A DNA stretch of 64,000 bases from Phycisphaerae bacterium (GTDB lineage: Bacteria; Planctomycetota; Phycisphaerae; UBA1845; Fen-1342), in contig JAJVHV010000003.1 in the NCBI GenBank assembly GCA_022072445.1, positions 73,204 through 137,203 on the forward strand. Reading direction: 5' to 3'. Each line of letters begins with the position of its first letter. Position 1 is the stretch's first letter. Below the pieces are notes generated by a model, which searched no databases, had not been told where the DNA came from, and saw only the letters and a list, made by a program, of their open reading frames with translations. A program made the translations under genes and the position numbers. Of the stretch, positions 17,402 through 58,926 are shown in pieces.

Positions 17402-18176
17402 CGCCGTCGCCGCGATTCTCCTTGCAACGCTCGTCTCGGTCTTCGGCTGCCGCGGCGCCGCGGGCCCTTCCGACATGACGCGCGCCGTCTCCGCCGAACG
17501 CGCCGACCAGCGGCGGGCGGCCCTCCTGCGCGTAGTGCGAAGCGAACGCTGCGGCGAACCGTGGGCTATCGAAGGGCTGACCGCCATCGCGCTGCTCGAT
17601 AGGGACGCGCCGACGCGTTGTGTCGCGCTGCGCGGCCTGCGACGCAGCGGCGATGGGCGGGCCGCCGACGTGTGTCTGAAGATTCTCGCCGCCGCGCCCG
17701 CCGCCCCGAGCGGCGAGGTCTGGCCGGCGGGCGACGACGTGCGGACCGAAGCCGCCGACCTGCTGGCGGCGCTGGTCGCGGCGGGGGCCGTGCCGGCGGA
17801 CCGACGCGCCGACGCCCGTGCCGCCGCCCTGGGCCTTCTGGCGGCTGATTCCTGCGCGGCGGTGCGCATCGCCGCGGCGCGCTGCCTTGCGCGGAGTCGG
17901 GACATGGACGCGATGCGGGCGCTGGTGGCGGGACTGCGCGACACGAATTTCGCGGTGGTCGACGCGTGCGAGGATTCGCTGGTGGCGCTAACCGGTCACA
18001 CCGAAAACGCCGTCGCCGGCGCGTGGGAGAAGTGGCTGGCGGCTCATCCGGACGACGTATTCGCCCATGCCGGCGAGGTTCCGCCGACGCGCCGCCCGCC
18101 CTATGCCGGTGCGTGGGGCAAGATGCGGCACGACGCGCGTACCTGGTGGGAGTGGCTCGTTCCGCCGGCCAAGTGA
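17325..18176 (+). CDS. HEAT-repeat-like lipoprotein
   Basis: 283 residues. The only in-frame start before the signal is ATG 17325, so the gene overlaps the end of murI by 77 nt in another frame. A Pro/Ser/Thr-rich leader precedes the hydrophobic stretch AVAAILLATLVSVFGC, whose cysteine fits a lipobox. The mature protein is Ala/Arg-rich with repeated helical units (CVALRGLRRSGDGRAADVCL, AVRIAAARCLARSRDMDAMR, AVVDACEDSLVALTGH), consistent with HEAT or armadillo repeats used for protein contacts. No enzyme motif is seen. It ends with a Trp-rich segment (AGAWGKMRHDARTWWEWL). Confidence 0.72.
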   Translation: MPSNSCHPKPTSPPPSTPRARNSACSAVAAILLATLVSVFGCRGAAGPSDMTRAVSAERADQRRAALLRVVRSERCGEPWAIEGLTAIALLDRDAPTRCVALRGLRRSGDGRAADVCLKILAAAPAAPSGEVWPAGDDVRTEAADLLAALVAAGAVPADRRADARAAALGLLAADSCAAVRIAAARCLARSRDMDAMRALVAGLRDTNFAVVDACEDSLVALTGHTENAVAGAWEKWLAAHPDDVFAHAGEVPPTRRPPYAGAWGKMRHDARTWWEWLVPPAK

Positions 18177-38420: not shown

Positions 38421-41400
38421 CTACTTCAGCTCTCGGATCGCCGCCTCGATCTTCTCGACATAGGACGCAAATTCGGCACGTCGGCGGGCCGTCCGCAGGG
38501 CCTTCTCATAGGCATCGCGGGCCTGCGGTGCCCGGCCAAGCTTCGCGAAGACCTGCCCGAGATGGAACCGGGCGGGAACGTTTTCGGCGTCAATTCGGAC
38601 CGCGTCCGACAGCGTCTTCTCCGCCGCGGCACTGTCGCCCGCCAGAAACTGCACCCACCCCAGCGTGTCCAGCACGTTGGGGTCCTCGGGCTTCAGCTCC
38701 GCGGCTCGCGTCGCGTATCGGACGCCTTCCGCGGCGCGGCTCAGCTCGTCGGCCAGCGTATACGCGATGTTGTTGAGCACCGCCGGATTGTTCTCGTCTT
38801 CCATCAGAATCTGCTCGTAGACGCGCACGCGCTCGGCGGGGTCGACGATGGCTTCCGACTTGATCTCCAGCGCCGCGACGCGCAGGGCCTTTTCGAGCTG
38901 CGCGTTCTGAATGATCGGTTCGATAACCTTGAGCCCCTCGTCGCGCCGGCCGGCCCGCACCAGCTCCTGCGCCAGCACGCTGTTGAGCCGGACGCCCTGA
39001 GGCGTCTCGATCGATTCGGCCGCGGCGACCTTCTGCATGACGGCGAGCTGCTCGTCGGGTTGCAGCAGTTCGCGGCTGATGGTGACCACGCTGATCAGGA
39101 ACGGCCAGCCGGCCAGCGCCGCGCCGCGGATCGACTCCTCGGCCGTAGCAATCCCTTCGGCCCGCCGATTCGCCCGTAGATACGCCTCGGCGCCTCGCGC
39201 CCGCAGGCCGGGCAACCGGAGCGGCTCCTCGAGCGACTCGTAGATCTTCACGGCTTCGGCTGCGCGGTTCGCGCGATTCAGCGCGATCAGCAGGTCGGCA
39301 TACATGGCGGCGAGCGCCTCGGGCCGCATTTCGCGCTGCCGCCCGAGCCGGATGGCGTTTTGAAGCGGATCAACCGCTGACGAGAACTCCTGGCGGAACA
39401 TGAGCTGCCGGCCGAGCAAGTACGGCCAGTAGGCATTCTCGGGTTGCTTGGCCATGAACTCGCGCGCCAGGGCCTCGGCGCGGTCGGCCTTGTCGTGCCG
39501 CGAGTAGAGCTGGACGAGCCGTTCGGCGGCGCGGCTGTCGCCCGGGTTCATTTCGAGCAGTCCGCGCAGCTCGGTCTCCGCCGCCGCTACTTGCCCGTCG
39601 GCTTCATAGGCCGTGGCCAGTGCGAACAGATGTTCGAGGGCGAAGTCCTTCGGCGCCAGGCGCTTGGCCTCGGCCAGGTCGGTGCGGGCGGCGGAGAAGT
39701 CGCGTGTGTCCAGATTCGCCAGGCCGCGCAGGTAATACGCCAGCGCGTTATTCGGCTCGCTCTGCAGCACGCGGGTGTAGACCTCACGCGCCTTGTCAAA
39801 CTGCCGCGTCGTGGCCAGGAACTTGCCCTGAAGCAGCAGGCCGCGCGTCTCGGTCGGGAAATCCTTGACGTACGCACTGACTTCCTTCTCCGTGTCGCCG
39901 AACCGCCGCGCGTTCAGCAGCCCCTCGATGATCGCCAGCCGGGCGCGCTGAATGTGCTGGATTTCCTCGGGCTTGAGCTTCTCCAGCACGCGCCGCTGCG
40001 CGTCGACCATCTTGAGCGGCTGGCCGGTGACCAGGTAGAAGCGCGCCAGTTGAAAGCGCGCGTCGGCCTGCGCGATGCGCCGCTGCTCGGGGTCGGCGAT
40101 CTGGCTTTCCGCCAGGCGGTCGGCCTGGGCGTACGCCTCCACCGCCGCCGTCTCGTCCCCGCGCCGCTCGCACAGCTTGGCCCGCAGAAACTCGGCCTGC
40201 ACCTTGTCGATCCCCTGGACGGCGTTCTGGAAGGCGGTGATGGCCTGCTCGCCCTCGTCAAAGCGCCCGGTCTTGCCGTAGTGCCGCGCGGCCAGGCGCA
40301 GCACCTCGATGTTGGTCGGCGCGAGGGCCTGGGCCGCCTTGATCGTCTCCTCGGCCTTCGTCATGTCTTCGGCCTTCGTGTAGAGCTCGATCAGGCGGAC
40401 CAGATTCTCGATGTCGTTGGGATTCTTCTGCCGTTCAGCCTCGCGCCGCGCGATGCCGACTTTGGGACTCTGCTCTTCCTCGACGATCTGCTTGCGCTCC
40501 TGCACCCAGACGTCGCGCGGCTCGATCTTGGCCGCCTCCATCAGGTGCTTGACCGAATCCTCGCGCCGCTCCAGCGCGCCGTACACCGAATAGAGCAGCT
40601 TGTGAGCGCCAAAATTCTGCGGGTTGATCTGCAGCGACTCTTCCAGCTTCGCCGCCACCTCCTCCAGGTTCGGCCGGCTGGTGCGCATCAGCGCGTCGGC
40701 CAGAAACGTCTTGAGCGACGAGTCGCCCGGCAGCGCCTGCTCGGCCGCCCGAAACTCCGTCACCGCCGCCGCGAAGTTCCCCCGCGCCCCTTCCAACCGC
40801 CCGCGAAACACCGCACCGTGCGCATTGTCCGCGTTCATCTCCGCCAGCCGCACGGCGGCCTTCTCGGCCGCGGCGAAGTCGCGCCGCGACAACGCCATCG
40901 AAAAGTCCTTTTCCAGCACGTTCGGATCGTCCGGCTTCAGCCGGACCAGTTCCGCCAGGTGCTTGGTAGCCTGATCCTGGTCGTTACGCTCGACGTAAAA
41001 ATTGAACAGGTCGGCCTCGCGGGCCACGGCGTCCGGATTCCCCTGGATCAGCTCCAGCAGCTTGGCGTCGCGCTCCTTCACGTCCGCCGTGGAGAGAATC
41101 ACGTCGACGCTGCGCAGATAGCGGGAGTAGGCCTCGTCCGAGCCGGCCTTGGCCGCCAGGGAGGCGACGATCGCGCGGGCATCTTCCTGCCGCTTGCCGG
41201 TGGTGGCGACGCGCACCAGTGTGCCGATCGCCGCGATGTTCCTGGGTTCGCGCTCCAGCAGCTCGCGCAGTTTCTGAATCGCCGAGCCGTAATTCTCAAG
41301 CTGCGCGTCGAGGACCGCCGCACCCAGCGCGAGCCGGCTGCTCTGCTCGGGGGCGGCCGCGATGGCCGCCTTGGCCTCTTCGACGCGCCCAAGCTGCCGC

Positions 41401-42992
41401 AGGGCCTCGGCCTTCGCCGCCAGCAGCTCCTCATCCTTGGGGCTGCGCCGCAGCATGTCGTCGCTCAGGTTCAACGCCTCCTGCGAGCGCTTCAGGCTGT
41501 TGAGCACGCGCAGCTTGCAGACCAGAATCTCGCGCGGCGCGTCCTGGCTGGAGCGGCGGTAGTTGTCGATGACCGAATCGCACATCGTCAATGCTCGGCC
41601 GTATTCGCGCTCCTGCTCGTAGAGCCGCGCCAGGCGCTCGATGGCGGGCGTCCAGTTGCCGCGCGCGAACGCCTCGTTCGATTTCTCAAAGCACTGGATT
41701 GCCGCCCGGTAGTTCCCGTCGATCACCGCCAGGCTGCCCTGCATGTAGGGCGTCACGTGCCAGGTGGGAAAAGCCGCCGCCGCCTTGTCGTAGTAGCCGC
41801 GAATCCGTGTCAGAACGTCCTTGCGCTCGTCGGCGTTGCGCGTCTCGCCGAAGTAGCGCAGGCCGAGCTGGAAGGCCTCGAAGTGCATCAGGGCGCGGCC
41901 CTCGAAGTTCATGCGGGCGCGGACGCTCTTGAGCCCGACGGTCCGCTCGAGCCCGTCGTCGAAGACGCTCAGGGCCGACTTGCCGCGCCGCGTCAGGTCC
42001 GCCGCCGGGTCGGCGCTCTGCTCGACGTTGGCCCAGTAGAGCGCGGCCAGTTCGCTGTAGCTCTGGTACATGCCGGGCTCGATCTCCAGGGAGCGCATCA
42101 GGGCCTGCTTGGCGTCGTCGAACAGCTTGGCGCGCTGCTCGGCCGGCATCTTGTCGTCGGCCTCGCGGAACAGCCGGCCCAGAAAGTTGCCCATTGCCAG
42201 GTGCAGTTCGGGGTCGTCCGCCTTGGCCTCGATGCTCTTCTGAATCACCGCCCGCGCTTCGTCGTTCTTGCCGGCGAACGAGAGCAGCGCCGACGCCCGG
42301 ATCGTCACGCCGGGGTGGCCCGGCTGCTTGGCCAGCGACCCCTGCAGGTATTGCAGGGCCTGCGCCCGATGTTGGCTGGCCTTGGCTTCCGAGTCGGCCT
42401 GCGAAGCGGTCCGCAGCTCGCGCTCGCTCCGCAGCAGCGCCACCTCCGGATTGTCCGGGTCCCGTTGTACGGCACGATCCAGTTGCTGCCGCGACTTCTC
42501 GGCGAACGAGGCATCTTGCGACACCAGTGCGTCGAGCGCCTGCGAGTTGCACACCAGCGCGAACACGTCGTCGGGCTTGAGCACCAGCAGCTCATCCGAG
42601 TACTTGCGCAGATCGGCCCAGACCGGCTGGCGGTTCCGCAGCTCCCACAGGTATCCCAGCAGCTTGCTCAGCACGGCGTCGTCGTTGGGCGTCTGCGAGT
42701 TGGCCGCGATCAGGAAGCGCACCGCGTCGACGATCTCGCCGATCTCATACGCGCAGCGCGACGCGTCGACGAGATACTTCACCTCCTTGCGCACGTCGTA
42801 GGCCTTGCGGTAGCGGTCGATGGCGCGCTCCTTGTCCCCCGCCGCCTCGAGCTCGCGCCCGGCCTTGGCGAACACCTCCGGGTCGCGGTTCGCCTGCCGG
42901 TACGCCGCCATCGCGAAAATGCCCACCGACAGCACCATCCCCACGATCGTGAGTGCCGCCACCAGTCCCTTGTTGACCCGACGTTGTGCCAT
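38421..42992 (-). CDS. Very large TPR-repeat protein of the exosortase/EPS locus
   Basis: 1523 residues. An N-terminal hydrophobic segment (LVAALTIVGMVLSVGIFAMAAY, about 9-30) is a membrane anchor or uncleaved signal. The rest is TPR and TPR-like helical hairpins almost to the end (for example YRKAYDVRKEVKYLVDASRC, ARTDLAEAKRLAPKDFALE, VRYATRAAELKPEDPNVLD). It resembles the PrsT-type TPR proteins found beside PEP-CTERM/exosortase systems, although PrsT is usually shorter and a lipoprotein. Likely a periplasmic scaffold for polysaccharide machinery. It follows the EpsI-like gene by 18 bp. Confidence 0.85.
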   Translation of the reverse strand: MAQRRVNKGLVAALTIVGMVLSVGIFAMAAYRQANRDPEVFAKAGRELEAAGDKERAIDRYRKAYDVRKEVKYLVDASRCAYEIGEIVDAVRFLIAANSQTPNDDAVLSKLLGYLWELRNRQPVWADLRKYSDELLVLKPDDVFALVCNSQALDALVSQDASFAEKSRQQLDRAVQRDPDNPEVALLRSERELRTASQADSEAKASQHRAQALQYLQGSLAKQPGHPGVTIRASALLSFAGKNDEARAVIQKSIEAKADDPELHLAMGNFLGRLFREADDKMPAEQRAKLFDDAKQALMRSLEIEPGMYQSYSELAALYWANVEQSADPAADLTRRGKSALSVFDDGLERTVGLKSVRARMNFEGRALMHFEAFQLGLRYFGETRNADERKDVLTRIRGYYDKAAAAFPTWHVTPYMQGSLAVIDGNYRAAIQCFEKSNEAFARGNWTPAIERLARLYEQEREYGRALTMCDSVIDNYRRSSQDAPREILVCKLRVLNSLKRSQEALNLSDDMLRRSPKDEELLAAKAEALRQLGRVEEAKAAIAAAPEQSSRLALGAAVLDAQLENYGSAIQKLRELLEREPRNIAAIGTLVRVATTGKRQEDARAIVASLAAKAGSDEAYSRYLRSVDVILSTADVKERDAKLLELIQGNPDAVAREADLFNFYVERNDQDQATKHLAELVRLKPDDPNVLEKDFSMALSRRDFAAAEKAAVRLAEMNADNAHGAVFRGRLEGARGNFAAAVTEFRAAEQALPGDSSLKTFLADALMRTSRPNLEEVAAKLEESLQINPQNFGAHKLLYSVYGALERREDSVKHLMEAAKIEPRDVWVQERKQIVEEEQSPKVGIARREAERQKNPNDIENLVRLIELYTKAEDMTKAEETIKAAQALAPTNIEVLRLAARHYGKTGRFDEGEQAITAFQNAVQGIDKVQAEFLRAKLCERRGDETAAVEAYAQADRLAESQIADPEQRRIAQADARFQLARFYLVTGQPLKMVDAQRRVLEKLKPEEIQHIQRARLAIIEGLLNARRFGDTEKEVSAYVKDFPTETRGLLLQGKFLATTRQFDKAREVYTRVLQSEPNNALAYYLRGLANLDTRDFSAARTDLAEAKRLAPKDFALEHLFALATAYEADGQVAAAETELRGLLEMNPGDSRAAERLVQLYSRHDKADRAEALAREFMAKQPENAYWPYLLGRQLMFRQEFSSAVDPLQNAIRLGRQREMRPEALAAMYADLLIALNRANRAAEAVKIYESLEEPLRLPGLRARGAEAYLRANRRAEGIATAEESIRGAALAGWPFLISVVTISRELLQPDEQLAVMQKVAAAESIETPQGVRLNSVLAQELVRAGRRDEGLKVIEPIIQNAQLEKALRVAALEIKSEAIVDPAERVRVYEQILMEDENNPAVLNNIAYTLADELSRAAEGVRYATRAAELKPEDPNVLDTLGWVQFLAGDSAAAEKTLSDAVRIDAENVPARFHLGQVFAKLGRAPQARDAYEKALRTARRRAEFASYVEKIEAAIRELK

Positions 42993-43010
42993 GATCTCGG
43001 TTCCCAGTCC

Positions 43011-43859
43011 TCACGCCGGCGGCACAGCCGTGCCGCGCGCGTTCAGTTCGTTCCAATCCGCCACGTGGTCCTTCAGCAGCAGCGGCAGGATCTTCCGCAG
43101 CAGCGGCCCGACCGCCTCCGCCGACGCCTGCCGGTCTGCCTGGCGCCGCATGCTGTAGTCCGTGAAGCGTATCTCGATCTTTGCGTAATACGCGTACTTG
43201 TCGAAGAGATTGGCCTGAATCAGCCGCACCTCGTCGCGCGTCACCGCGTAGCGCCCGTTGCACAGGAAAAAATACATCACGTGCGTCGCCGCGTCATGCG
43301 GATTCTGGCCGCGCAGCGTCGCCCCCGACGGCACAAAACCCAGCAGCCGCACCCCCACGCGGTCGCGCGGCGCACCCACCTCCGGAACGGGGACCTCGAT
43401 CGTCTCGGCCGAGAGGCAATCGTAGCCGCCCGCCAGGTAGCATTCGTCGGGCACGTGCGGCACCATGTCGGGCTTGCCGGTGTAGTACGTGATGAACAGG
43501 TGCGCGGTGTTCACGGCGTCCGCGCGGTCGTGGCGCGTGTCGACCACGCGCCACGACAGATACTCGCGCGTCCCGAGCCACTCGATCATCTCCTCGGGCA
43601 GCGCCGCCGGCGGCTCGATGTGCAGCGTGTACTCCGGCGCCAGCTTGTAGCGGTCCATCGCCGCCAGCGGGCGCTTCAGCGGCACCGCCGCCTTGCGGAA
43701 GTGATTCCCCAGCAGTTGCGCCACCGTCTGCATGGTCAGCGCGCAAACCAGCAGCACGCCGACGCAGACGTAGTAGCGCGCGCTGGTCCGCGCCGCGCCG
43801 GCTGAAACCCCGTCGCGCGCCGCCAGCCCGATGCCCGTGGATGCGGGTGCCTCGCTCAT
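43011..43859 (-). CDS. EpsI-like exosortase-associated protein
   Basis: 282 residues. One transmembrane segment near residue 30 (YYVCVGVLLVCALTMQTVAQLL), then a periplasmic domain with SWRVVDTRHDRADAV, TYYTGKPDMVPHVPDECYLAGG, VGVRLLGFVPSG, YFFLCNGRYAVTRDEVRLI. This matches the EpsI domain found fused to or next to exosortases; the PHVPDECY segment is its signature. Function is unknown, but the association with exosortase is consistent. It lies between the exosortase (70 bp away) and the TPR gene. Confidence 0.9.
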   Translation of the reverse strand: MSEAPASTGIGLAARDGVSAGAARTSARYYVCVGVLLVCALTMQTVAQLLGNHFRKAAVPLKRPLAAMDRYKLAPEYTLHIEPPAALPEEMIEWLGTREYLSWRVVDTRHDRADAVNTAHLFITYYTGKPDMVPHVPDECYLAGGYDCLSAETIEVPVPEVGAPRDRVGVRLLGFVPSGATLRGQNPHDAATHVMYFFLCNGRYAVTRDEVRLIQANLFDKYAYYAKIEIRFTDYSMRRQADRQASAEAVGPLLRKILPLLLKDHVADWNELNARGTAVPPA

Positions 43860-43929
43860 GCGTCTCCCAGGGCGCTTCCGCGCCGCGCGCTGCGGCCACG
43901 CCGGACGGCTCGCCGCCCGGCCGTCAGCC

Positions 43930-44847
43930 TCACGCCGGCGTGAGCGCCGAATCCTCCTCGGCGGGGGCCTCGACCACCAGATTGCTGAGGATCCAGCCCA
44001 ATCCGCTGAACAGCCCGAATGCGATCAGCAGCAGCAGCAGCCCCAGGATCGTGTGGTACGTCCCCTGGGCATACTTCGCGTCAACGAAGATGAACAAGTA
44101 GGTCGTCACCGTCACGCGCAGGATGTTGCAGAACACGGCGATCGGCACGCACGCCGCCACCATCACCGCCCGCTGCCACGCCGGCCGGTTCGACAAGAAG
44201 GCGACCGCCACGCCCAGCGCGCACAGCGTCATCAGCATCCGCATCCCGCTGCACGCGTCCTCCACGCCGATCACCTGCAAGCGTCCCTGATACATGCACT
44301 CCAGCATCGAACCCGTCCGCTGGATGTCCAGGCCCGGTATCAGCCCCATGACGCTCGAGGTCACCGTCGCCGCCAGCCGGCGCAGCGGATCGGTCAGTTG
44401 GAAATAGTGCCGCTTCGGCAGCGGGATCGCGAAAAAGAGGTACATCCACGGCAGCCAGGCGTAACGCATCACCGGCAGCCCGCACAGCAGGATGATCACC
44501 CCCAGCAGCGTGATCATCATCGCCAGCGGCCGGACGTAGCCGATCTGCACGCCCCACAACGACCACTGATACAGCCCCAGCCCGGCCAGCAACACCGGCA
44601 GCCCTACCCACGCCCGCCGCACCGGAGCCTGGCGGATCTTCTCCCAGTGATAGTAAACAAACCAGCCGCTGAAGAGCGGGATGATCCAGCCGTGGGACCA
44701 GTTCGGATCGTGGCTCCACGTGTACTGAAGCTCGTACAGAACGTTGTAAAACACCGCCCCGAAGCACACCGCGATCAGGGCCGACTTCAACTGGGCCGGC
44801 GTGTCGAAGCGGATGCGCCAGTCTGTCGGTGCCGCGGCTACGGTCAT
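43930..44847 (-). CDS. Exosortase/archaeosortase family transpeptidase-like membrane protein
   Basis: 305 residues with about eight transmembrane helices. The active-site triad is visible: C199 in EDACSGMRML, R244 in NILRVT and H265 in GTYHTILGL. N-terminal SHDPNWSHGWIIPLFSGWFVYYHW is typical of exosortases. These enzymes cleave a C-terminal sorting signal and are thought to attach proteins to a surface glycan or lipid. The subtype cannot be fixed by eye. It follows the SLBB export gene by 12 bp and precedes the EpsI-like gene. Confidence 0.96.
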   Translation of the reverse strand: MTVAAAPTDWRIRFDTPAQLKSALIAVCFGAVFYNVLYELQYTWSHDPNWSHGWIIPLFSGWFVYYHWEKIRQAPVRRAWVGLPVLLAGLGLYQWSLWGVQIGYVRPLAMMITLLGVIILLCGLPVMRYAWLPWMYLFFAIPLPKRHYFQLTDPLRRLAATVTSSVMGLIPGLDIQRTGSMLECMYQGRLQVIGVEDACSGMRMLMTLCALGVAVAFLSNRPAWQRAVMVAACVPIAVFCNILRVTVTTYLFIFVDAKYAQGTYHTILGLLLLLIAFGLFSGLGWILSNLVVEAPAEEDSALTPA

Positions 44848-44859
44848 GCACGGCGCTCG

Positions 44860-46464
44860 CTAGAAGGGCAGGCCGCGCTGCTGCCGGCGCTGCCGCGCCA
44901 GATCCGACGGGTTCGCCTGCACCGAATACGAGTCCCGGTCCGCGAAGTTGCGGTCATACACAAACCCGAATCCATACGTAAACCTGAACGAATTACGTAT
45001 GACAAACAGGAACGGTGCGACCGCATCCGACCCGACGTTCACAATATCCTCGTCCCGCAGCAGAACGTCGCTCTCCACCCCCGCGAAGATCGCGTCCAGA
45101 TTCACCGAAATGATGATCTGCTTATCGGTCCCAGGCTCCCGGCGGATAATCTCACACCGCGCCGGCCACGCCAGCGGCGAGAATCCCGCCCCCAACGCCA
45201 CCGCCTGCTTGATGGTGATTTCACGATTCCCGAAGCCGTAAACCCCGGGGCGGTTGATTTCGCCCATCAGGTAGAACACGCCCGCGTCCACCGGAACTTC
45301 GATCACGTCCCGATTCCGGACCACGATGTTGTAACGCGCGTCGCCCGACCGCAGCGCCGCCACGTCGATCGCGATCACACGCTGCGCCTGCCCCTCGTCC
45401 GGAAGCTTGCTCCAGTCGAACTCGTTCTTCGGCTGACCGGTCTCCTCTGGCGGCATCTCCTCCACCGGTGCTTCCTCTTCGGTTTGCGTCTCGCGAATCT
45501 GCTTGGTGTCCGGATCGTAGATCAGTGGGGCGAACGGCTTGTCCGAGGCCCGCTTCACGTCGCGGCGCGGCTTTTCTTCCTGGCGCCGCGGGCCGAGCAG
45601 CTCCATCAGCTCTTCGACTTCCTTGTCCGGCTTCTGCTCCTGCTCCTGGGCGCGCGCACCCGCCTTGCGGCTGGCGGCCGGCCGCGACTCTTGCGGCCCC
45701 GTCCCAGTCCCGCCGAACGCCGAAAAGTTCGCATACTCCGAGTCGGAGTCCGGCTCGGTTGGTGGCGGAATGACCAGCCCGTTCTCGCCCGTGGTTGGCG
45801 CCTCACCCGGCTGCGAGGCCGCGTTCGCGTCCTCGGGCCGGCGGATGATGTACAGGCGCTTCACCTCCGCGCCGATGTCGCTGGCCTGACCGATCGCCTC
45901 GAGCAGGCGCAGGTCGGGATCGATGATCGGATACTGCCCCGCGCGGCCGACCGCGCCGAGAATGCTGAACGTCCGCTGGTTCGAGCGGATCACCAGCACG
46001 CGCACCTGCGGATCAGGCAGAATGCCCGCCTGCTTGAGCTGGGCCTTCAACTCGCTCTCGAGCTCCGCTTCCGTCAGCCCCGTCACCTTCACCGAACCCA
46101 GCATCGGCAGCCGGATGAACCCGTTCGGTGCAACCAGCAGGTTCGCGACTTCCTGGCTCCCCTCGCGCAGCAGATCGTCGATCACAATCGAAAGCTGATC
46201 CGACGGCCCAATCCGCACGTCTTCCAGATCGGGCTTGAGGTCGTCCGGCGTCGGGTCGGAGGCATTCTGGCGTTGCGTCGGGCTGTCGTGTGCGGTGAGC
46301 ACGCGCCGGATACCGACCTCGCGCGTGCCAATCGGAAACGCCCCGACTTTCGTCGGATCGAGAAACCCGTTGAACAACGCGCAGCCGCTCGTCAACGACA
46401 ACGTCAGGCCGAATGCGATGACGAGACTCGCGGGCGGGAGGCGCAGAATCCGCCGACAGCTCAT
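44860..46464 (-). CDS. Wza-like polysaccharide export outer-membrane lipoprotein with SLBB domains
   Basis: 534 residues from ATG 46464, preceded by GAGGAG. Signal and lipobox: LTLSLTSGC. The polysaccharide-export domain (about 85-165) has VRIGPSDQLSIVIDDLLRE and IRLPMLGSVKVTGLTEAELES. A first SLBB-like unit follows (TFSILGAVGRAGQYPI). A 120-residue Glu/Pro/Gln-rich low-complexity insert (about 215-335) separates it from a second SLBB (FYLMGEINRPGVYGFGN). It forms the outer-membrane exit channel for exopolysaccharide. First gene of the locus. Confidence 0.93.
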   Translation of the reverse strand: MSCRRILRLPPASLVIAFGLTLSLTSGCALFNGFLDPTKVGAFPIGTREVGIRRVLTAHDSPTQRQNASDPTPDDLKPDLEDVRIGPSDQLSIVIDDLLREGSQEVANLLVAPNGFIRLPMLGSVKVTGLTEAELESELKAQLKQAGILPDPQVRVLVIRSNQRTFSILGAVGRAGQYPIIDPDLRLLEAIGQASDIGAEVKRLYIIRRPEDANAASQPGEAPTTGENGLVIPPPTEPDSDSEYANFSAFGGTGTGPQESRPAASRKAGARAQEQEQKPDKEVEELMELLGPRRQEEKPRRDVKRASDKPFAPLIYDPDTKQIRETQTEEEAPVEEMPPEETGQPKNEFDWSKLPDEGQAQRVIAIDVAALRSGDARYNIVVRNRDVIEVPVDAGVFYLMGEINRPGVYGFGNREITIKQAVALGAGFSPLAWPARCEIIRREPGTDKQIIISVNLDAIFAGVESDVLLRDEDIVNVGSDAVAPFLFVIRNSFRFTYGFGFVYDRNFADRDSYSVQANPSDLARQRRQQRGLPF

Positions 46465-46820
46465 GCCGAACTCCTCGACGACGGCCGGATTTCCTGATCT
46501 CACTCGTCGCAGACGGGTGAAGTCACGACGAATCGTGGGGGCAGTCCAAACCGTTCCCGAAGGTCGCACCCACTCGACGGCCGGGAATGTAACGTCGCTA
46601 AGCCGCTCGTGTCAAACACGTTCGGACACGACCGGACGGCGCGCCGTCGACCGCGACGGACACGCCCCGGACATTATCGGCTGCGCGCATCCGGTCTCTT
46701 GCGACTGTATTCCCGGGCTCGCGCACGGGTTCGCCGATTTCTGCCCAACATGCGCCTCATCCCCCACACCTCTCCCCAGCGCTGCCGATAGGAACCGCTG
46801 CCTCACGCTCGGAGCCGATC
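46465..46820. promoter_or_regulatory. Divergent promoter region of the EPS/exosortase locus
   Basis: 356 bp without a credible gene, between the divergent SLBB and acetyltransferase starts. It holds a perfect 14-bp palindrome GACGGCGCGCCGTC (46635-46648). Just upstream are CGTGT-CAA-ACACG (46608-46620) and a GTGTC/GACAC pair (46609-46613 and 46625-46629). These are plausible operator sites. No -35/-10 pair is convincing. Confidence 0.45.
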
Positions 46821-52917: not shown

Positions 52918-52991
52918 GTCCCTGTAGCTCAACTGGATAGAGCGTCGGCCTCCGGAGCCGAAGGTTGTGGGTTCGAATCCCGCCGGGGACG
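52918..52991 (+). tRNA. tRNA-Arg (anticodon CCG)
   Basis: 74 nt. The acceptor stem GTCCCTG pairs with CGGGGAC at 52984-52990, with discriminator G at 52991. Anticodon stem TCGGC / GCCGA closes the loop CTCCGGA, giving anticodon CCG and decoding CGG. The T arm has GGGTTCGAATCCC. No CCA is encoded in the DNA. A promoter and a terminator hairpin flank it, so it is probably a single-gene transcript. Confidence 0.95.
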
Positions 52992-53014
52992 CTTCCCGCC
53001 CGCAGAAACGCCGC

Positions 53015-53086: not shown

Positions 53087-54514
53087 TCAGCGCCCACGCC
53101 GGCGATACATGCCCAGGAGCGTCAGCGGCGTCAGCCCGAGGGGCAGGAGCCCGCCCGCGCCGCATCCCGACGTGCTGGTCGCCTCGCCCTCCGACGACGA
53201 TGAATCGCTTGCCGACGAGGCCGCCGCTCCGCCACGCGAGGCAAACGCGCCGGCCGCCGCTCCTTCGACCACTTCGACGGTGATGCGTTCGGCATCGACG
53301 AGCTCGCCGTCGTCGACCAGCAGGCGGAAATAGAACGTTCCGGCGGTAGTGGCCTGCCAAACGACGATGGGCTGTTCGAGGCCGGAGAGCGGCTGGAAGA
53401 AGCGGCCGAACTCGCTGGCGTCGATGCGCGCCCCGACTTCGTCGGTCTGCTGCCAGGTGAACGCGATGGCGTCGCCGTCGGGATCGAACGAGCGCGTGCC
53501 GTCGAGGATGATCGTCGAGCCGACTGTGACGCGGCTGCTCGGGCCCGTGGCCAAGGCGACCGGCGGACGGTTCGGCGGGATGGCGGCGACGACGGTGATG
53601 GCGACTTCGTCGCTGGACGGCAGTCCATCGGACGCGTTGTCGTCGACGGTCAGGCGATAGACGTAGGTGCCCAGCGCGTTGAGCGTGACCTGCGAGATGG
53701 GCGTCCGGTCGGTGGCGGTCGGCTCGACGCGTTCGGGTCCGGAGATCCACTCCCACGCGAATGTCAGCGTGTCCTTGTCAATGACGTTGTCGCTCTCGCT
53801 TCCAAACCCGACGTTCGTACCGTCGAATGTGCGGCTTCCGTCGAGCTTCACCGTCGTGCCGGCGGCGACCGTCTGGTCCGGGCCGGCATCGGCGAACGCG
53901 GGCGGATTGGGTTCGAGCATCGCCGGGTTCTCGATGCAGAAGATGTTCTCAGTCTCGCAGTTGATGATGGACTCTTCGCCTGGGTCCTGATCGTTGGTCA
54001 CGCAAAACTCGAACAGGAACCGAACATCAAAATCGATCAGGCCGCGCATGCGTGCCTGGTTACGTCCCGTCCAGCTCGGAATCTGAATCAGAAAATCCAG
54101 AAACAGGGTGTCGCCGGCGGGCGGGGAAAACCCGTCGCCGTCTTCCGGAAAGAAATTCTCCATTGCCTGGGTTACCGGACCGGGCTCTGGCGTGAGATAA
54201 CCGGGAACCGGCACCCAAAAGGCCTGAAAGCGGACGAAGACCTGGTCGTCGCCGCCCGCCGACCCGTCGCCCGAAAAATCCGGATCGAAGATTTCCAGTG
54301 TGGCCACCAGAAGGTCGAGCTCGTGTGCCAGATCGGTGTTCGGGTCGAACGTCGCAAAGCTCGTGTACGGCCCCTCGGGAACGCCGCCGATGTTCTCGGC
54401 GATCAGCCATGTGATGCTGACGATTTCGGGCGGCGTGTTATCGTCCTGGGCGCTCGCGATCCCGGCCTGGGCGAGTGCCAGAGAGAGGGCGGCAACAAAC
54501 GCTTGGGTCTTCAT
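53087..54514 (-). CDS. Exported PKD/cadherin-like protein with Cys-containing C-terminal sorting-like tail
   Basis: 475 residues from ATG 54514 (MKTQAFVAALSLALAQAGIASAQ, signal peptide). Two PKD-like Ig domains: about 200-310 (ADAGPDQTVAAGTTVKLDGSR) and 310-420 (ATGPSSRVTVGSTIILDGTR). The last 30 residues are Ser/Thr/Gly-rich, then GCGAGG, a hydrophobic stretch (LLPLGLTPLTLLGM) and YRRRGR. That three-part tail, with a small-residue/Cys motif, helix and Arg cluster, resembles GlyGly-CTERM, MYXO-CTERM or exosortase signals. It could be anchored by a protease such as the exosortase in this window, but the match is to a general pattern. Confidence 0.85.
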   Translation of the reverse strand: MKTQAFVAALSLALAQAGIASAQDDNTPPEIVSITWLIAENIGGVPEGPYTSFATFDPNTDLAHELDLLVATLEIFDPDFSGDGSAGGDDQVFVRFQAFWVPVPGYLTPEPGPVTQAMENFFPEDGDGFSPPAGDTLFLDFLIQIPSWTGRNQARMRGLIDFDVRFLFEFCVTNDQDPGEESIINCETENIFCIENPAMLEPNPPAFADAGPDQTVAAGTTVKLDGSRTFDGTNVGFGSESDNVIDKDTLTFAWEWISGPERVEPTATDRTPISQVTLNALGTYVYRLTVDDNASDGLPSSDEVAITVVAAIPPNRPPVALATGPSSRVTVGSTIILDGTRSFDPDGDAIAFTWQQTDEVGARIDASEFGRFFQPLSGLEQPIVVWQATTAGTFYFRLLVDDGELVDAERITVEVVEGAAAGAFASRGGAAASSASDSSSSEGEATSTSGCGAGGLLPLGLTPLTLLGMYRRRGR

Positions 54515-54620
54515 ATTCTCACCTGCGAACTTCGCATGCCCCGCACCATTATATCGGCTTCCCGGCAGTCCCCTGCACTCGTTCACCGCAGATCGGCAAC
54601 GGGCCGATTGCCCGCCGCGA

Positions 54621-55448
54621 CTACGGCGTTTCGTCGACCAGCGTCAGGTTTTCGCCAATCGTCACCTCGGCGAAGTCTCCGCTGGCATTCGGGGTGGGGT
54701 TGAACACAATACCCAGGTCCTCGCCCTCGAAGTACTCGTTGCCGCGCCGGCCCCCGCCGCCCAGCTTCAGGAAGAAGCCGGGCATGAACGGGTCGCACTG
54801 GTAACCATCGATCTGCGCCAGCGTTTTCTGCCCCCCCGCGCCGGTTGCGCCCTCGGTGAACCCGAGTCCGCCGGAGAGCGGCGGGCTGTAAACCAATTGG
54901 CCGTCCTGCGTGTAATAGAACGCGACGCTGTCGCAGGCGGTGGGTGGCTGCGTGAACACGAGAATCGCGTCGGGCGTCAGGAGTTCGAAGGTCGTGGTCG
55001 TCGGCAGGGGCGTGCTCCGGGCGGTGGGGCCGAGCCGGACCGTTGTCGCGCCGGCCACACCGGTTCCGTTGAAGACAAATGTGCCCGGCGGGAGCGTGAA
55101 AGCCGTTCCGATCCGGGTTTCCTCGAGCAGTTGCACGTAACCGTTGGACAGCAGCACGTCCTGCTGATCGGCAGAGCGGATGCTCCCGACGTTGACCCAG
55201 GCCGCAAACGTAAAGTTCAGCTCGTAGTCGGGGTGGTTATTCGCAAAGAGCAGCGCCATCTCGCGGCGAAAGCCACCGATCACCGGGCGGCGGCTGCCGG
55301 AACCGTTCGAACCCGTGTCATCGTCGCTCGAGGCCGTGAACCCCTCCGTGAATGTCAGGAAGGGATTGCGTTCGGTGGTGAACGTGGTCGTGCAACTCGC
55401 CGTGGCGCCGAGGACGCACAGCGCTGCGAGCATCGAGGTCAGTCTCAT
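54621..55448 (-). CDS. Probable lipoprotein of unknown function
   Basis: 275 residues. The N-terminal hydrophobic segment ends in LGATASC, a possible lipobox. The mature protein is Thr/Ser/Gly-rich with strands (AAWVNVGSIRSADQQDVLLSNGYVQLL, TFVFNGTGVAGATTVRLG). No family recognised. It is one of several exported proteins on this strand and may share an operon with the FG-GAP gene upstream (32-bp gap). Confidence 0.7.
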   Translation of the reverse strand: MRLTSMLAALCVLGATASCTTTFTTERNPFLTFTEGFTASSDDDTGSNGSGSRRPVIGGFRREMALLFANNHPDYELNFTFAAWVNVGSIRSADQQDVLLSNGYVQLLEETRIGTAFTLPPGTFVFNGTGVAGATTVRLGPTARSTPLPTTTTFELLTPDAILVFTQPPTACDSVAFYYTQDGQLVYSPPLSGGLGFTEGATGAGGQKTLAQIDGYQCDPFMPGFFLKLGGGGRRGNEYFEGEDLGIVFNPTPNASGDFAEVTIGENLTLVDETP

Positions 55449-55480: not shown

Positions 55481-58345
55481 TCAGTCGGCAATTCCGTAAA
55501 TCAGATAAGTCTCGCCGGCCCGGGCACGATCTCGCGGCGACGCCGCGACAGAACCCAGCAATAGATCGCGCACGCCGTCGCCGTCAACGTCGCCGGCCGA
55601 GCCGATGCCGAAGCTGCGATCTTCCTGCTCGCCGAGACCGGCGCCCAGGAAGTCGCCGCTGTTGCGACCCACGAAAACGGCGCCGGGCAAGCGCTCGGTG
55701 CCGATCTCAGATAGGTTGATCGTCCCGCTCAGCCGCGTGGAGCCGTAGATCAGATAGACGACCCCGCAGTTCTGCCGGTCGATTTCAAGTGTGCCGTCCA
55801 AGTCGGTATCAACGGTGATCGACCGGTTGGGGGCGGCGATGAGAATGTCGTCCACGCCGTCGCGATCGATGTCTCCGACGCCGGCGACGCGTGCTCCGGT
55901 GAAGTCGCCCTCGGTCTGGCCGACAAACACAACGCCCAAGCCGCGATCCGGGATTTCATTGAACGGGATTTCGTTCGTGGTGAGGTTGATGACTTCGCGC
56001 GAGCCGAAAAACACGGCGGCGCCACCCGAGCGATTGTTCACCAGCGGCGAACCAATCACCACGTCGCTGATTCCGTCGCCGTTGAAGTCTCCCGCGCTGT
56101 CCTGCGACTCGCCGAGCCGATCCCCGGGGTTTCCAATCACGCGGATGCCATCGAAAATGCGTGGCGTGCTGTCGGTGTTCATCGGCAGGCCTAGCTCCTC
56201 GATGGCCAGCTCTCCGCCCATGACGAGGCTTCTTACGCGGCCCAGCACAATGAAGCACGAGCCGCGCCCTTCATTGCTCAATGCGCTTCCAATCGCGAAG
56301 TCGTCCAGACCGTCAGCGTTGAAATCGCCCACCTCTTTGGCGTTTCCGATGCGCGCTCCGGCAAAGCCGCCCCAAATTCGGATTGTGCGGGCGGCGATGC
56401 AGATGTCACGATCGATCGCGGCACCGCACGGATCGGCGTCGTCCAGATCCACGTAATACCCCGGGCTGCCCTCGAAAAGAACCGTGGCGCCGTTGCCGAA
56501 GCCGGCGGGCTGCAATGCCAACTCATCGATGATGTAGTGGTACGGCCCGCCGTGCGGGAGCGAGTCCACGTGACCGAGCGGAGTGCCCGGGTAATTGAAC
56601 GCCGGGTTGGCCGGTGGTGCCTGGACACCGGTCCAGGGGAAGAAACCGGTATTCGCAAAGCAGAAGTAGGTGCTCACAACGCCCGCGCCGGGGAGGCTGC
56701 GTCCCGCGGCGATATTCTCAAACGTGTTGGCGATCGGATCGCGGTTGGGAATCGAGATGATAATGCTGTCAAAGTCGTAGGGCGATACGGTCTCGCCACA
56801 CTGATCGCCAAAGTCGTTGGTACTGAGCCGGCAGCCCAATCGAATCGAGCCCGCGTTGGGGGCGCCGACAACGTCGGCGATGTGCCGATAATAGTACGTC
56901 AGGCCGCCGGGGGCTGTCGGTGCCTTGGGGCCGTAGAACGTCTCGGGGCACGGCGCGTCGGTAAAGGGGACATGTGGAATGGTGCCGAACTCAGCCAACC
57001 CCAACACCTGCCTGCCGGGGAAGCCCAGGTCGGGCCGCAGCGACGAACCCGCCGCGACGACGACGGCACCTGTCCGGAAGTATCCATTCGCGTCCAGCGG
57101 CGCCAGAAAACCGGGGTCGTTTCCCGCGATCGAGTTCGAAAGCCCGAGAGAATCCACGAACGGCACACCGAACGCAAACTCGCGAATCCCGTCGCCGTCC
57201 CAATCCGACAGGACGGCGAAGCTGGTGATCCCGCGGCTCGGCCGGATCGGATCGGTCTGTTCGGGCACGCCGGCATAGATGTCGCCGCGGAACAACGTGC
57301 CGGTCGAGTTCAGGTTGATGACGCCGCTGAAACGGTCGCGACGGCCATAAACGAGATATCCCTCGCCGATGCCCGAGCGCTCAAGGTTGAATACGTACTG
57401 TGGCTTTCCGAACTGCGCGGCGATGAAAAAGTCGCCGAAACCGTCGCGATCGATGTCCATCGCGGAACCGACGAAGCTGCCGGCGTTGTCGCGCGGGTTG
57501 AAGCCCTCGAAGATGGCGCCGGAGATGCGGCCCTGCGGAATGCCGAGGTCGCGCAGGTCGACCAGCCCGGCCAGCCGGGCCCGCAGGCGGATCGATCCGG
57601 GAGCGTAGAACGAAAACGTGTCCACGCCGTCGCTGACGAGCGCCAGAATCCGATAAGTTCCGGCGGCGAAGTTGGCGGTCGGCAGGTCGAACGTAAATGT
57701 GTCGGTGGTCTGCGAGTTGCTCTCGCGCAGCAGCACCTCGTTGCCGTTCGGGAACTGGTCCGGATCGAGCAGAATCTGCACCGAGACGATGCTGTCCGGG
57801 TCGCTCACGCTCCAGGCCACGTCGAAACGCGGATTCACGGCCGTCGTGCGGTCGAAGGCGAAGTTGTCGCGCGGCGACGTGAAGAAGAGCCGCGGCCGCT
57901 GGTTGACCGTGATCCGGCCGCTGGCGTACTCGAAGGCCGCGATCTCGCCCGCCTCGATCAGCAGAACGCCCACGAAGTAGTCGCCCGCGTCCAGGTCGGT
58001 CGTGTCTAGCAGGGCGCTGCTCTGCGACAGCGGCAGGTTGTCCGCCGCGATGATCTCGTTGTCGTTCTCGGGGTTCTGATCGAGGTCGAAGATCACGTCG
58101 ATCAGCGCGCTGCGCGACGTGGCGACCGCCCGCCAGGTGGTTTCGATCTGCGTGCCGCCGGCGATCGAGAGATCGCTGACCGGCGCGAACACGTCGACCG
58201 AAGCCACGGTCGAGATCGTCGTCGTGTCGCCCGTGCCGCCGAGGATGAACTCGAGATCGGGCAGGCCCGTGGACGGGCAGCCGCCGACATTGGCCGCGAC
58301 GATCAGCGTCATGGCCGCTACGGTCGCGAAGATTCTGCGTGACAT
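55481..58345 (-). CDS. Large FG-GAP/integrin-alpha-like lipoprotein
   Basis: 954 residues from ATG 58345; lipobox LIVAANVGGC. N-terminal beta domains (about 40-245) precede seven or so FG-GAP units with Ca-binding-like DxDxDG loops: DIDRDGFGDF, DWDGDGIREF, DFNADGLDDF, DFNGDGISDV, DIDRDGVDDI, DVDGDGVRDL. The repeats would form a seven-bladed propeller similar to integrin alpha. Such proteins bind extracellular ligands or polysaccharides, but the ligand is unknown. A region about 430-640 without repeats interrupts the propeller. Confidence 0.87.
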   Translation of the reverse strand: MSRRIFATVAAMTLIVAANVGGCPSTGLPDLEFILGGTGDTTTISTVASVDVFAPVSDLSIAGGTQIETTWRAVATSRSALIDVIFDLDQNPENDNEIIAADNLPLSQSSALLDTTDLDAGDYFVGVLLIEAGEIAAFEYASGRITVNQRPRLFFTSPRDNFAFDRTTAVNPRFDVAWSVSDPDSIVSVQILLDPDQFPNGNEVLLRESNSQTTDTFTFDLPTANFAAGTYRILALVSDGVDTFSFYAPGSIRLRARLAGLVDLRDLGIPQGRISGAIFEGFNPRDNAGSFVGSAMDIDRDGFGDFFIAAQFGKPQYVFNLERSGIGEGYLVYGRRDRFSGVINLNSTGTLFRGDIYAGVPEQTDPIRPSRGITSFAVLSDWDGDGIREFAFGVPFVDSLGLSNSIAGNDPGFLAPLDANGYFRTGAVVVAAGSSLRPDLGFPGRQVLGLAEFGTIPHVPFTDAPCPETFYGPKAPTAPGGLTYYYRHIADVVGAPNAGSIRLGCRLSTNDFGDQCGETVSPYDFDSIIISIPNRDPIANTFENIAAGRSLPGAGVVSTYFCFANTGFFPWTGVQAPPANPAFNYPGTPLGHVDSLPHGGPYHYIIDELALQPAGFGNGATVLFEGSPGYYVDLDDADPCGAAIDRDICIAARTIRIWGGFAGARIGNAKEVGDFNADGLDDFAIGSALSNEGRGSCFIVLGRVRSLVMGGELAIEELGLPMNTDSTPRIFDGIRVIGNPGDRLGESQDSAGDFNGDGISDVVIGSPLVNNRSGGAAVFFGSREVINLTTNEIPFNEIPDRGLGVVFVGQTEGDFTGARVAGVGDIDRDGVDDILIAAPNRSITVDTDLDGTLEIDRQNCGVVYLIYGSTRLSGTINLSEIGTERLPGAVFVGRNSGDFLGAGLGEQEDRSFGIGSAGDVDGDGVRDLLLGSVAASPRDRARAGETYLIYGIAD

Positions 58346-58389
58346 CACGTACACCTCAGAAGCACATATTCCCGCGGCGCCCGCGAAGC

Positions 58390-58926
58390 TCAATCGCCGG
58401 TGCGCTGGATGAAAGCCACGATGCGATATCCTGACGCTGTGTCGCCCGAAGGCGTGACGGTAAAGGTCACCGAGTCGCCGCAGTTGTAATTGGCCGTGTT
58501 CCGCAGGAGCACCCCGAACGGCTCGACCTCGATGAAGGGGTCGTTCTCGGTCCCGCCGCCGAGCCGCACAATCGCCCCAATCTCATTGAGATTGGACACG
58601 TCGCCGAGCGTGATTTCCGTGACCGGGCAGTTGACCACCTGCCCGCTGCTGTCGCCCGGCGGCATCGTCGCGAAGAACGACTCGACCGTGTCGGAGCCGA
58701 GCCGGTACGACAGGTTCATCGTGACCACGCGGCTGGTTCGGTTCTCCATCGTGATCAGCACGGCCGGCGCGGTGCCGGGGATGGTCGCGGAGCGCTGCAC
58801 GAGGCCCGTCGCGTTCAGAAAATCCTCGCTGAAGAGCCCCTGAATCCCGGTACAGCCCGACGTGACCGCTCCGAGCAGCAGGACCGCCAGCACGCCGCCT
58901 GCGATGTTGCGATTCGACACGCTCAT
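58390..58926 (-). CDS. Lipoprotein, paralogue of the neighbouring 181-residue lipoprotein
   Basis: 178 residues with lipobox GAVTSGC. Mature domain: VLITMENRTSRVVTMNLSYR, then PPGDSSGQVVNCPVTEITLG and RNTANYNCGDSVTFTV. The same layout occurs in the gene upstream at 58948-59493, so the pair arose by duplication. Function unknown. It sits just upstream of the FG-GAP gene (44 bp). Confidence 0.78.
   Translation of the reverse strand: MSVSNRNIAGGVLAVLLLGAVTSGCTGIQGLFSEDFLNATGLVQRSATIPGTAPAVLITMENRTSRVVTMNLSYRLGSDTVESFFATMPPGDSSGQVVNCPVTEITLGDVSNLNEIGAIVRLGGGTENDPFIEVEPFGVLLRNTANYNCGDSVTFTVTPSGDTASGYRIVAFIQRTGD

What the first reader, a model, noticed from the sequence alone, without database searches (positions are those of the whole stretch)
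53087..53180. Cys-containing C-terminal sorting-like tail in a PKD protein
The C-terminus has GCGAGG, a hydrophobic helix, then RRRGR. This pattern of small-residue/Cys motif, TM helix and basic cluster matches several sorting-signal families. The exosortase at 43930-44847 is a candidate processing enzyme, but Cys-type tails are usually handled by other proteases. If the tail is common in this genome, the window would supply one enzyme/target pair.
Basis: inference. Interest (0 to 1): 0.5.

Follow-up and report, generated by a model that had tools for sequence, protein, structure and literature searches.

The report
Cysteine-type C-terminal protein sorting tail
A probably secreted bacterial protein ends in a short cysteine, membrane-helix and arginine tail that many otherwise different proteins of related planctomycetes share; it looks like an anchoring signal whose processing enzyme is not yet known.

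Summary
The frame at 53087-54586 (-) encodes a PKD-domain protein ending SGCGAGGLLPLGLTPLTLLGMYRRRGR. The tail is not chance: two other proteins of this genome carry it, and a 29-tail profile finds it in 76 of 114 genomes of the order at E<=0.001 (22 of 33 genomes new to that search), against 1 of 293 others in a phylum sample (fewer candidates scored there). It is absent at that threshold from 38 of 114. Of 50 Cys tails read by one rule, 46 have 18 residues after the Cys before the helix ends.

The enzyme/target pair is not supported. The genome has at least 19 PEP-CTERM tails, the exosortase's expected clients. One tail-bearing genome (G034, 94% complete) has no detectable exosortase, though the three other exosortase-less genomes lack the tail. 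Canonical myxosortase passes its cut-off in 1 of 114 genomes, rhombosortase in 7; neither does here.

Best reading: a Cys-type sorting signal, probably of Phycisphaerae, designed like MYXO-CTERM (the isolated tail passes TIGR03382, not TIGR03901). Lipidation at the Cys and cleavage by a divergent CPBP protease are inferred. New variant of a known kind, enzyme unknown.

The parts
53087..54514 (-). PKD-domain protein with signal-like N-terminus, 475 aa from the ATG (frame open from GTG at 54586)
54449..54514 (-). signal peptide MKTQAFVAALSLALAQAGIASA (by eye, AxA-like end)
   Evidence: sequence reading
53591..53887 (-). PKD domain (PF22352)
   Evidence: residues 234-332
53438..53572 (-). PKD domain (PF18911)
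   Evidence: residues 339-383
53150..53170 (-). signature SGCGAGG; Cys codon at 53162-53164
   Evidence: Cys invariant and Gly at least 90% in alignment A2
53105..53149 (-). hydrophobic segment LLPLGLTPLTLLGMY
53087..53104 (-). basic end RRRGR and stop
43930..44847 (-). exosortase (not judged part of this system)
   Evidence: two exosortases in the genome

Best explanation
The tail is a genuine C-terminal sorting/anchoring signal of the Cys type, frequent in one order that is probably of class Phycisphaerae (Planctomycetota). Proposed steps: (1) a Sec signal peptide takes the protein across the inner membrane; (2) the C-terminal helix with its cytoplasmic Arg cluster stops it there, leaving Cys-Gly at the outer end of the helix; (3) the Cys is lipidated by an unidentified acyltransferase; (4) an intramembrane protease, most likely a CPBP/Rce1-like one that is not a canonical myxosortase, cuts next to the Cys and removes helix and Arg tail, leaving a lipid-anchored surface protein. 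Shown here: the tripartite anatomy, its recurrence on proteins of different domain content, its spread over the order, and that no myxosortase or rhombosortase over its model's cut-off was found in this genome (96.7% complete). Inferred: lipidation, cleavage, the enzyme class and the final location. Split confidence: sorting signal about 0.85; not an exosortase client about 0.7; CPBP as the enzyme about 0.4.
For: Three tails in this genome on different proteins. 76 of 114 order genomes at E<=0.001, 22 of the 33 among them that were new to that search, against 1 of 293 non-own genomes in the phylum sample. In 60 fetched neighbourhoods one rule reads 50 frames with Cys tails, 46 of them with exactly 18 residues between the Cys and the end of the uncharged stretch. 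By a second rule 37 of 49 Cys-tail frames have a hydrophobic N-terminus, against 218 of 562 other frames. 48 tail proteins match 43 Pfam families in all, some overlapping, the commonest in 7 of 48, as expected of a sorting tag. The window tail alone scores 19.5 bits against the 15.85 cut-off of TIGR03382, a MYXO-CTERM model. The 8 tail-bearing genomes examined each have 4-7 CPBP proteases. The design parallels MYXO-CTERM, where MrtX cleavage of TraA needs the Cys (PMC11980579: abstract, introduction, part 1 of the discussion and passages seen).
Against: 38 of 114 order genomes, six of them in this genome's own family, show no tail at E<=0.001. No CPBP gene was seen beside a tail gene in 60 neighbourhoods of 4-20 kb, and no telling recurrent neighbour. 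No CPBP of this genome reaches a Mrt cut-off. Of its seven CPBPs only the ABC-permease/CPBP fusion has a reciprocal best hit in all 7 tail-bearing genomes compared; the Mrt-like L034 has one in 6 of 7, and similar proteins occur in genomes without a detected tail. The rules and profiles favour Cys-Gly and constant spacing, so those figures are partly circular. No lipidation or cleavage data exist.
Confidence: 0.5

Rival explanations
1. The tail is a divergent exosortase substrate, PEP-CTERM with Cys-Gly in place of Pro-Glu-Pro, processed by one of the genome's two exosortases.
For: Exosortase is found in 110 of 114 order genomes; of the four without it (G025, G027, G034, G038) three also lack a tail at E<=0.001. 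Helix length and Arg end resemble the genome's PEP tails (by eye). Two exosortases exist here, one about 8 kb from the gene.
Against: G034 (94% complete, 4% contamination) carries two neighbouring Cys-tail genes (L155) and no exosortase at E<=1e-5; the two other sampled genomes of its family also lack exosortase. No Pro-Glu-Pro. At least 19 PEP tails are at hand as expected clients.
Confidence: 0.18
2. The tail is a plain uncleaved C-terminal membrane anchor; the Cys serves for disulphide bonding or reversible acylation, and there is no sorting enzyme.
For: No cognate enzyme was found; a helix plus Arg cluster is enough to anchor a protein (general knowledge).
Against: The Cys motif at nearly fixed distance from the basic residues on proteins of different domain content is more than a plain anchor needs. 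In the homolog L195, 38% identical to the window protein, the GCGAGGLLPL stretch is identical while the linker before it differs (L195 was itself found by its tail).
Confidence: 0.22
3. It is an ordinary MYXO-CTERM processed by a canonical myxosortase.
For: TIGR03382 is passed by the isolated window tail; tripartite architecture with Cys.
Against: TIGR03901 lists none of the three Cys tails among its 27 matches in this genome at E<=10; its three hits over cut-off are PEP/PAP tails. Mrt_core passes its cut-off in 1 of 114 genomes, G001, not this one. The spacing is shorter than in the one MYXO-CTERM I counted, TraA (18-19 against 25 residues).
Confidence: 0.05
4. A rhomboid protease of rhombosortase type handles it.
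For: Rhomboid-like matches occur in 110 of 114 genomes.
Against: Rhombosortase passes its cut-off in 7 of 114 and not here (36.9 against 84 bits); the model also rings below cut-off in all 14 control genomes.
Confidence: 0.08

Closest known systems
MYXO-CTERM / myxosortase (TIGR03901, TIGR03382; MrtX)
   Same: Cys-containing signature, helix, Arg cluster at the extreme C-terminus, on proteins of many kinds; the isolated window tail passes TIGR03382.
   Different: Not matched by TIGR03901; tighter spacing than TraA; no canonical myxosortase over cut-off here; Planctomycetota rather than Myxococcota; 1-5 matches at E<=0.001 in positive genomes rather than dozens.
PEP-CTERM / exosortase
   Same: Similar helix length and Arg end; PEP-CTERM proteins coexist in the genome.
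   Different: Cys-Gly instead of Pro-Glu-Pro; one tail-bearing genome without detectable exosortase.
JDVT-CTERM, Synerg-CTERM, CGP-CTERM with MrtJ, MrtS, MrtA
   Same: Cys-type tails assigned to CPBP proteases (JDVT/MrtJ in the introduction of PMC11980579; MrtS and MrtA names; the rest recalled).
   Different: No NCBIfam family of these names matched the 29 tails of A2 or the 33 of A5 (whether NCBIfam holds such tail models was not checked); no CPBP gene adjacent in 60 neighbourhoods.
GlyGly-CTERM / rhombosortase
   Same: Gly-rich signature, short helix, Arg end.
   Different: Cys present; no rhombosortase over cut-off in this genome.

Membership tests
MYXO-CTERM | signature with Cys, then helix, then Arg cluster at the C-terminus of an exported protein | tested here: met
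   export by eye for the window protein
MYXO-CTERM | match to TIGR03901 over its cut-off | tested here: not met
   none of the three Cys tails among 27 listed matches; 2 of 29 tails (best E 0.16) and 3 of 33 (TraA control set aside) match at E<=10
MYXO-CTERM | match to the broader TIGR03382 over its cut-off | tested here: inconclusive
   window tail as a 29-mer 19.5 against 15.85 bits; not reported for the whole protein or a 57-mer; 9 of 29 and 10 of 33 tails match at E<=10
MYXO-CTERM | cognate myxosortase (Mrt_core) in the genome | tested here: not met
   1 of 114 genomes over cut-off, not this one (best here 8.7e-6)
MYXO-CTERM | Cys-dependent cleavage and surface anchoring | not testable with these tools
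   needs experiments
PEP-CTERM | Pro-Glu-Pro signature | tested here: not met
PEP-CTERM | exosortase in every tail-bearing genome | tested here: inconclusive
   none found in G034, which has Cys tails, but it is one genome, 94% complete; the other 75 tail-positive genomes have exosortase
GlyGly-CTERM | rhombosortase in the genome | tested here: not met
   36.9 against 84 bits
JDVT-CTERM | tail next to a MrtJ-like protease gene | tested here: not met
   no CPBP seen in 60 neighbourhoods; best MrtJ score 45.6 against 75

The most novel reading that the evidence does not exclude
A previously undescribed sorting system of Phycisphaerae: a short, fixed-register Cys-Gly tail recognised by an unidentified intramembrane enzyme that is neither exosortase, rhombosortase nor canonical myxosortase, giving C-terminally lipidated surface proteins in parallel with PEP-CTERM in the same cell.
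Probability: 0.42. Interest if true: 0.65.

Novelty: new variant of a known kind. Interest (0 to 1): 0.45.

Why it matters
It gives a defined, searchable orphan sorting signal with a phylogenetic profile, the kind of starting point from which sorting enzymes were found before (PEP-CTERM/EpsH, title; MYXO-CTERM/MrtX, introduction of PMC11980579). If confirmed it extends Cys-type C-terminal anchoring to Planctomycetota and points to a protease and a lipidating enzyme still to be named. It also warns that TIGR03901 in this genome scores three PEP/PAP-type tails above its cut-off and misses the three Cys tails.

Tried and rejected
Degenerate DNA pattern for the tail: 529 + 472 matches against 192 + 171 in the control; only the first places were listed, and I did not use it. 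MYXO-CTERM model on the genome: 27 matches, of which 19 read as PEP and 2 as PAP tails, 5 as neither, and one (L024) was not parsed by my script. CPBP gene next to the tail (phmmer with eight own proteins against 3755 frames): hits only to the TPR-like L039 and, in three loci, to L032, which I take to be its ABC-permease part (not aligned). Recurrent neighbour: the widest families are an ABC-ATPase-like frame (my reading) with relatives in 6 loci and the tail proteins themselves. A CPBP family common to tail-bearing genomes (reciprocal best hits in 7 genomes): L032 7, L034 6, L038 6, L036 5, L033, L035 and L037 0. Exosortase as partner: argued against by G034 only; three of the four exosortase-less genomes also lack the tail. 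On re-checking, that fact made me raise this rival from 0.15 to 0.18, lower 'not an exosortase client' from 0.75 to 0.7, and the novel case from 0.45 to 0.42. Papers, seen as listings unless said: 14 for myxosortase / MYXO-CTERM, none with a Planctomycetota title; 344 for other Cys-tail terms, 20 listed; 11 for planctomycetes with PEP-CTERM terms; 1 for Phycisphaerae + CTERM, whose two CTERM mentions lie in its reference list; 4 for the TIGRFAM numbers; none for Planctomycetota + C-terminal sorting + cysteine + transmembrane helix. The key paper, Haft 2024, is not held, so a description there cannot be excluded.

Limits: tails were found with profiles and rules that favour Cys-Gly and ungapped spacing; one of the 14 'other' tails (L201) is in fact a Cys-Asn tail of the same shape. 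Not every match was read. The phylum control scored at most 27 candidates per genome against up to 70 in the order; at E<=0.01 two more real Cys tails lie outside the order (G351, G184). Relatives are unnamed and many are fragmented. The ORF choice keeps the longest frames and can hide genes.

Full report
Observation. The - strand frame at 53087-54586 is open for 499 codons and ends TSTSGCGAGGLLPLGLTPLTLLGMYRRRGR. The likelier start is the ATG at 54514, which gives a signal-peptide-like N-terminus (by eye). Two PKD domains pass Pfam cut-offs. The window is C3:73204-137203 of a 5.25 Mb genome in 50 contigs, 96.7% complete. The seven named genomes with the closest relatives of one of its CPBP proteases are titled Phycisphaerae, Phycisphaerales or Planctomycetota, so the organism is probably of class Phycisphaerae; this is inference and the order could not be named.

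Is the tail shared? The window tail alone finds the C11 tail at E=0.02 and the C1 tail at E=1.25; a fourth hit, in C7, has no such tail on reading. C11 is a 573-aa open frame ending STCGVGTLGVMPLTLACLAGMRRRQRHSR; C1 is a 1731-aa open frame with PKD-like sequence (my reading) ending SRQLCGAFGFFPIMLTLAGMLALRRRRVL. A profile of the three (A1) finds nothing else below E=0.2 in the genome. In 81 genomes (own and relatives) 77 have an A1 match at E<=1, a loose threshold. I read 29 of these hits: L091 was misread because its contig is cut, L099 has no such tail, L102 is PEP-CTERM; the other 26 and the three own tails form alignment A2, with invariant Cys and at least 90% Gly after it.

Specificity. 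A2 over the whole order: 76 of 114 genomes at E<=0.001, 45 of 65 among those at least 90% complete and at most 5% contaminated; 38 have none, six of these in the own family. Of the 33 genomes that were not in the earlier search (G374-G406), 22 are positive. In the phylum sample 1 of 293 non-own genomes reaches E<=0.001 and 10 reach 0.01. All 11 matches of those 10 genomes were read: three are real Cys tails (G273, G351, G184), three genomes give PTP- or PAP-like tails (G278 twice, G114, G350), the rest are unrelated. The phylum search scored at most 27 candidates per genome, so it is less sensitive, though it recovered all three own tails.

Anatomy across the order. In 60 fetched neighbourhoods 611 frames of 150 aa or more were kept, and 70 end in helix plus basic residues: 50 of Cys type (2 of them own), 6 of PEP type, 14 others, mostly ordinary membrane proteins by eye, but one (L201) a Cys-Asn tail of the same shape. 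In 46 of the 50 the uncharged stretch after the Cys is exactly 18 residues (16 once, 19 twice, 20 once); the window tail has 19. By a second rule, 37 of 49 Cys-tail frames have a hydrophobic N-terminus against 218 of 562 others. The profile and the rule favour Cys-Gly and constant spacing, so these figures are partly circular. Four loci hold two Cys-tail genes (L154, L155, L173, L175). 48 tail proteins match 43 Pfam families in all, some overlapping, the commonest (DUF3466) in 7 of 48, with PKD, thrombospondin-3, FG-GAP, matrixin, trypsin and haem-peroxidase domains among them. The closest homolog read (L195) is 38% identical and keeps GCGAGGLLPL while the linker before it differs. These are the marks of a sorting tag on many clients.

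How common in this genome? An 841 kb sample (about 16%) scanned without a fixed spacing gave 5 candidates in 3207 frames, of which 2 are the known tails; three codon-shuffled copies gave 1, 2 and 2. So the signal is sparse here, about three proteins known, against 19 PEP and 2 PAP tails among the 27 hits (read, one not parsed); two further PEP tails turned up in the sample (L393).

Which enzyme? Exosortase: 2 in this genome, found in 110 of 114, not in G025, G027, G034 and G038. G034 has two neighbouring Cys-tail genes (L155), so exosortase is probably not required; but this is one genome, 94% complete and 4% contaminated, and the other three exosortase-less genomes have no tail at E<=0.001, which speaks for the rival. 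Myxosortase core: over cut-off in 1 of 114 (G001), best here 8.7e-6. Rhombosortase: over cut-off in 7 of 114, here 36.9 against 84 bits. CPBP/Rce1: 7 copies here over cut-off, none reaching a Mrt cut-off, the best being L034 with 45.6 against 75 bits for MrtJ. In 7 tail-bearing relatives L032, the ABC-permease/CPBP fusion, has reciprocal best hits in 7 of 7, L034 in 6, L038 in 6, L036 in 5, and L033, L035 and L037 in none. L034-like proteases also occur in genomes without a detected tail (for example G027 and G041). No CPBP gene was seen beside a tail gene in 60 neighbourhoods. The enzyme is therefore open; a CPBP remains the best guess by analogy with MrtX, whose cleavage of TraA needs the Cys (PMC11980579: abstract, introduction, part 1 of the discussion and passages seen).

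Known or new? The isolated window tail passes TIGR03382 (19.5 against 15.85 bits), so an annotator using that model on a short fragment could call it MYXO-CTERM; the whole protein and a 57-residue piece were not reported. TIGR03901, described when built as restricted to Myxococcales among 1460 reference genomes (PMC3325183, passages), does not list the three tails. TraA's tail, the positive control, passes it with 20.6 against 20 bits. The tail fails two tested features of MYXO-CTERM (the TIGR03901 match and a canonical myxosortase), so it is not filed as a member but as working like one. The listings of six literature searches showed no evident description in Planctomycetota in the held library; the key paper on Cys-type signals is not held.

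Verdict. The tail is real, frequent in an order and sorting-like. The enzyme/target pair in the window is not supported. The mechanism (lipidation at Cys, CPBP cleavage, surface anchoring) is inference by analogy.

Noticed in passing
L290 (G001:C80), 8760-9065 and 17295-17999: The only myxosortase core over cut-off in the order search (116.6 bits) shares its contig with a frame ending in a MYXO-like tail (GCCSGGGGAAGAGLGALVALVLGLRPRRR). Transfer from, or contamination by, a myxobacterium is possible (G001 has 7% contamination).
   Followed up: partly
window 38421-46569: The exosortase neighbours a large TPR-like protein (my reading), a 282-aa protein weakly like EpsI type V (0.071) and a 569-aa protein that reads like a polysaccharide-export protein (my reading, not searched). 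The exosortase scores 139.5 bits against XrtA, below its cut-off of 208.
   Followed up: partly
window 54621-55448 and 55481-58393: The two genes upstream on the same strand begin with lipoprotein-like signals (ATASC and NVGGC, by eye), so the Cys-tailed protein sits beside two likely N-terminal lipoproteins. The second has FG-GAP repeats.
   Followed up: no
G000:C4:272636, C25:76570, C5:108008 (L005-L007): TIGR03901 (MYXO-CTERM) scores three PEP/PAP-type tails above its cut-off in this genome, a likely source of wrong annotation.
   Followed up: yes
L245-L251: Seven genomes of the order have rhombosortase over the cut-off; their GlyGly-CTERM clients were not sought.
   Followed up: no
L201, 5674-10068: A 1464-aa frame ends RVCNVFGMAPLVLTFFGLVAMRGWRRRS: a Cys-Asn version of the tail with the same 18-residue spacing, missed by my rule.
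   Followed up: no
window 52918-52992: tRNA-Arg (anticodon CCG) about 95 bases beyond the stop of the PKD gene.
   Followed up: no
family f2: G027, G034, G038: No exosortase found in any of the three sampled genomes of this family; outside it only G025 lacks one.
   Followed up: no
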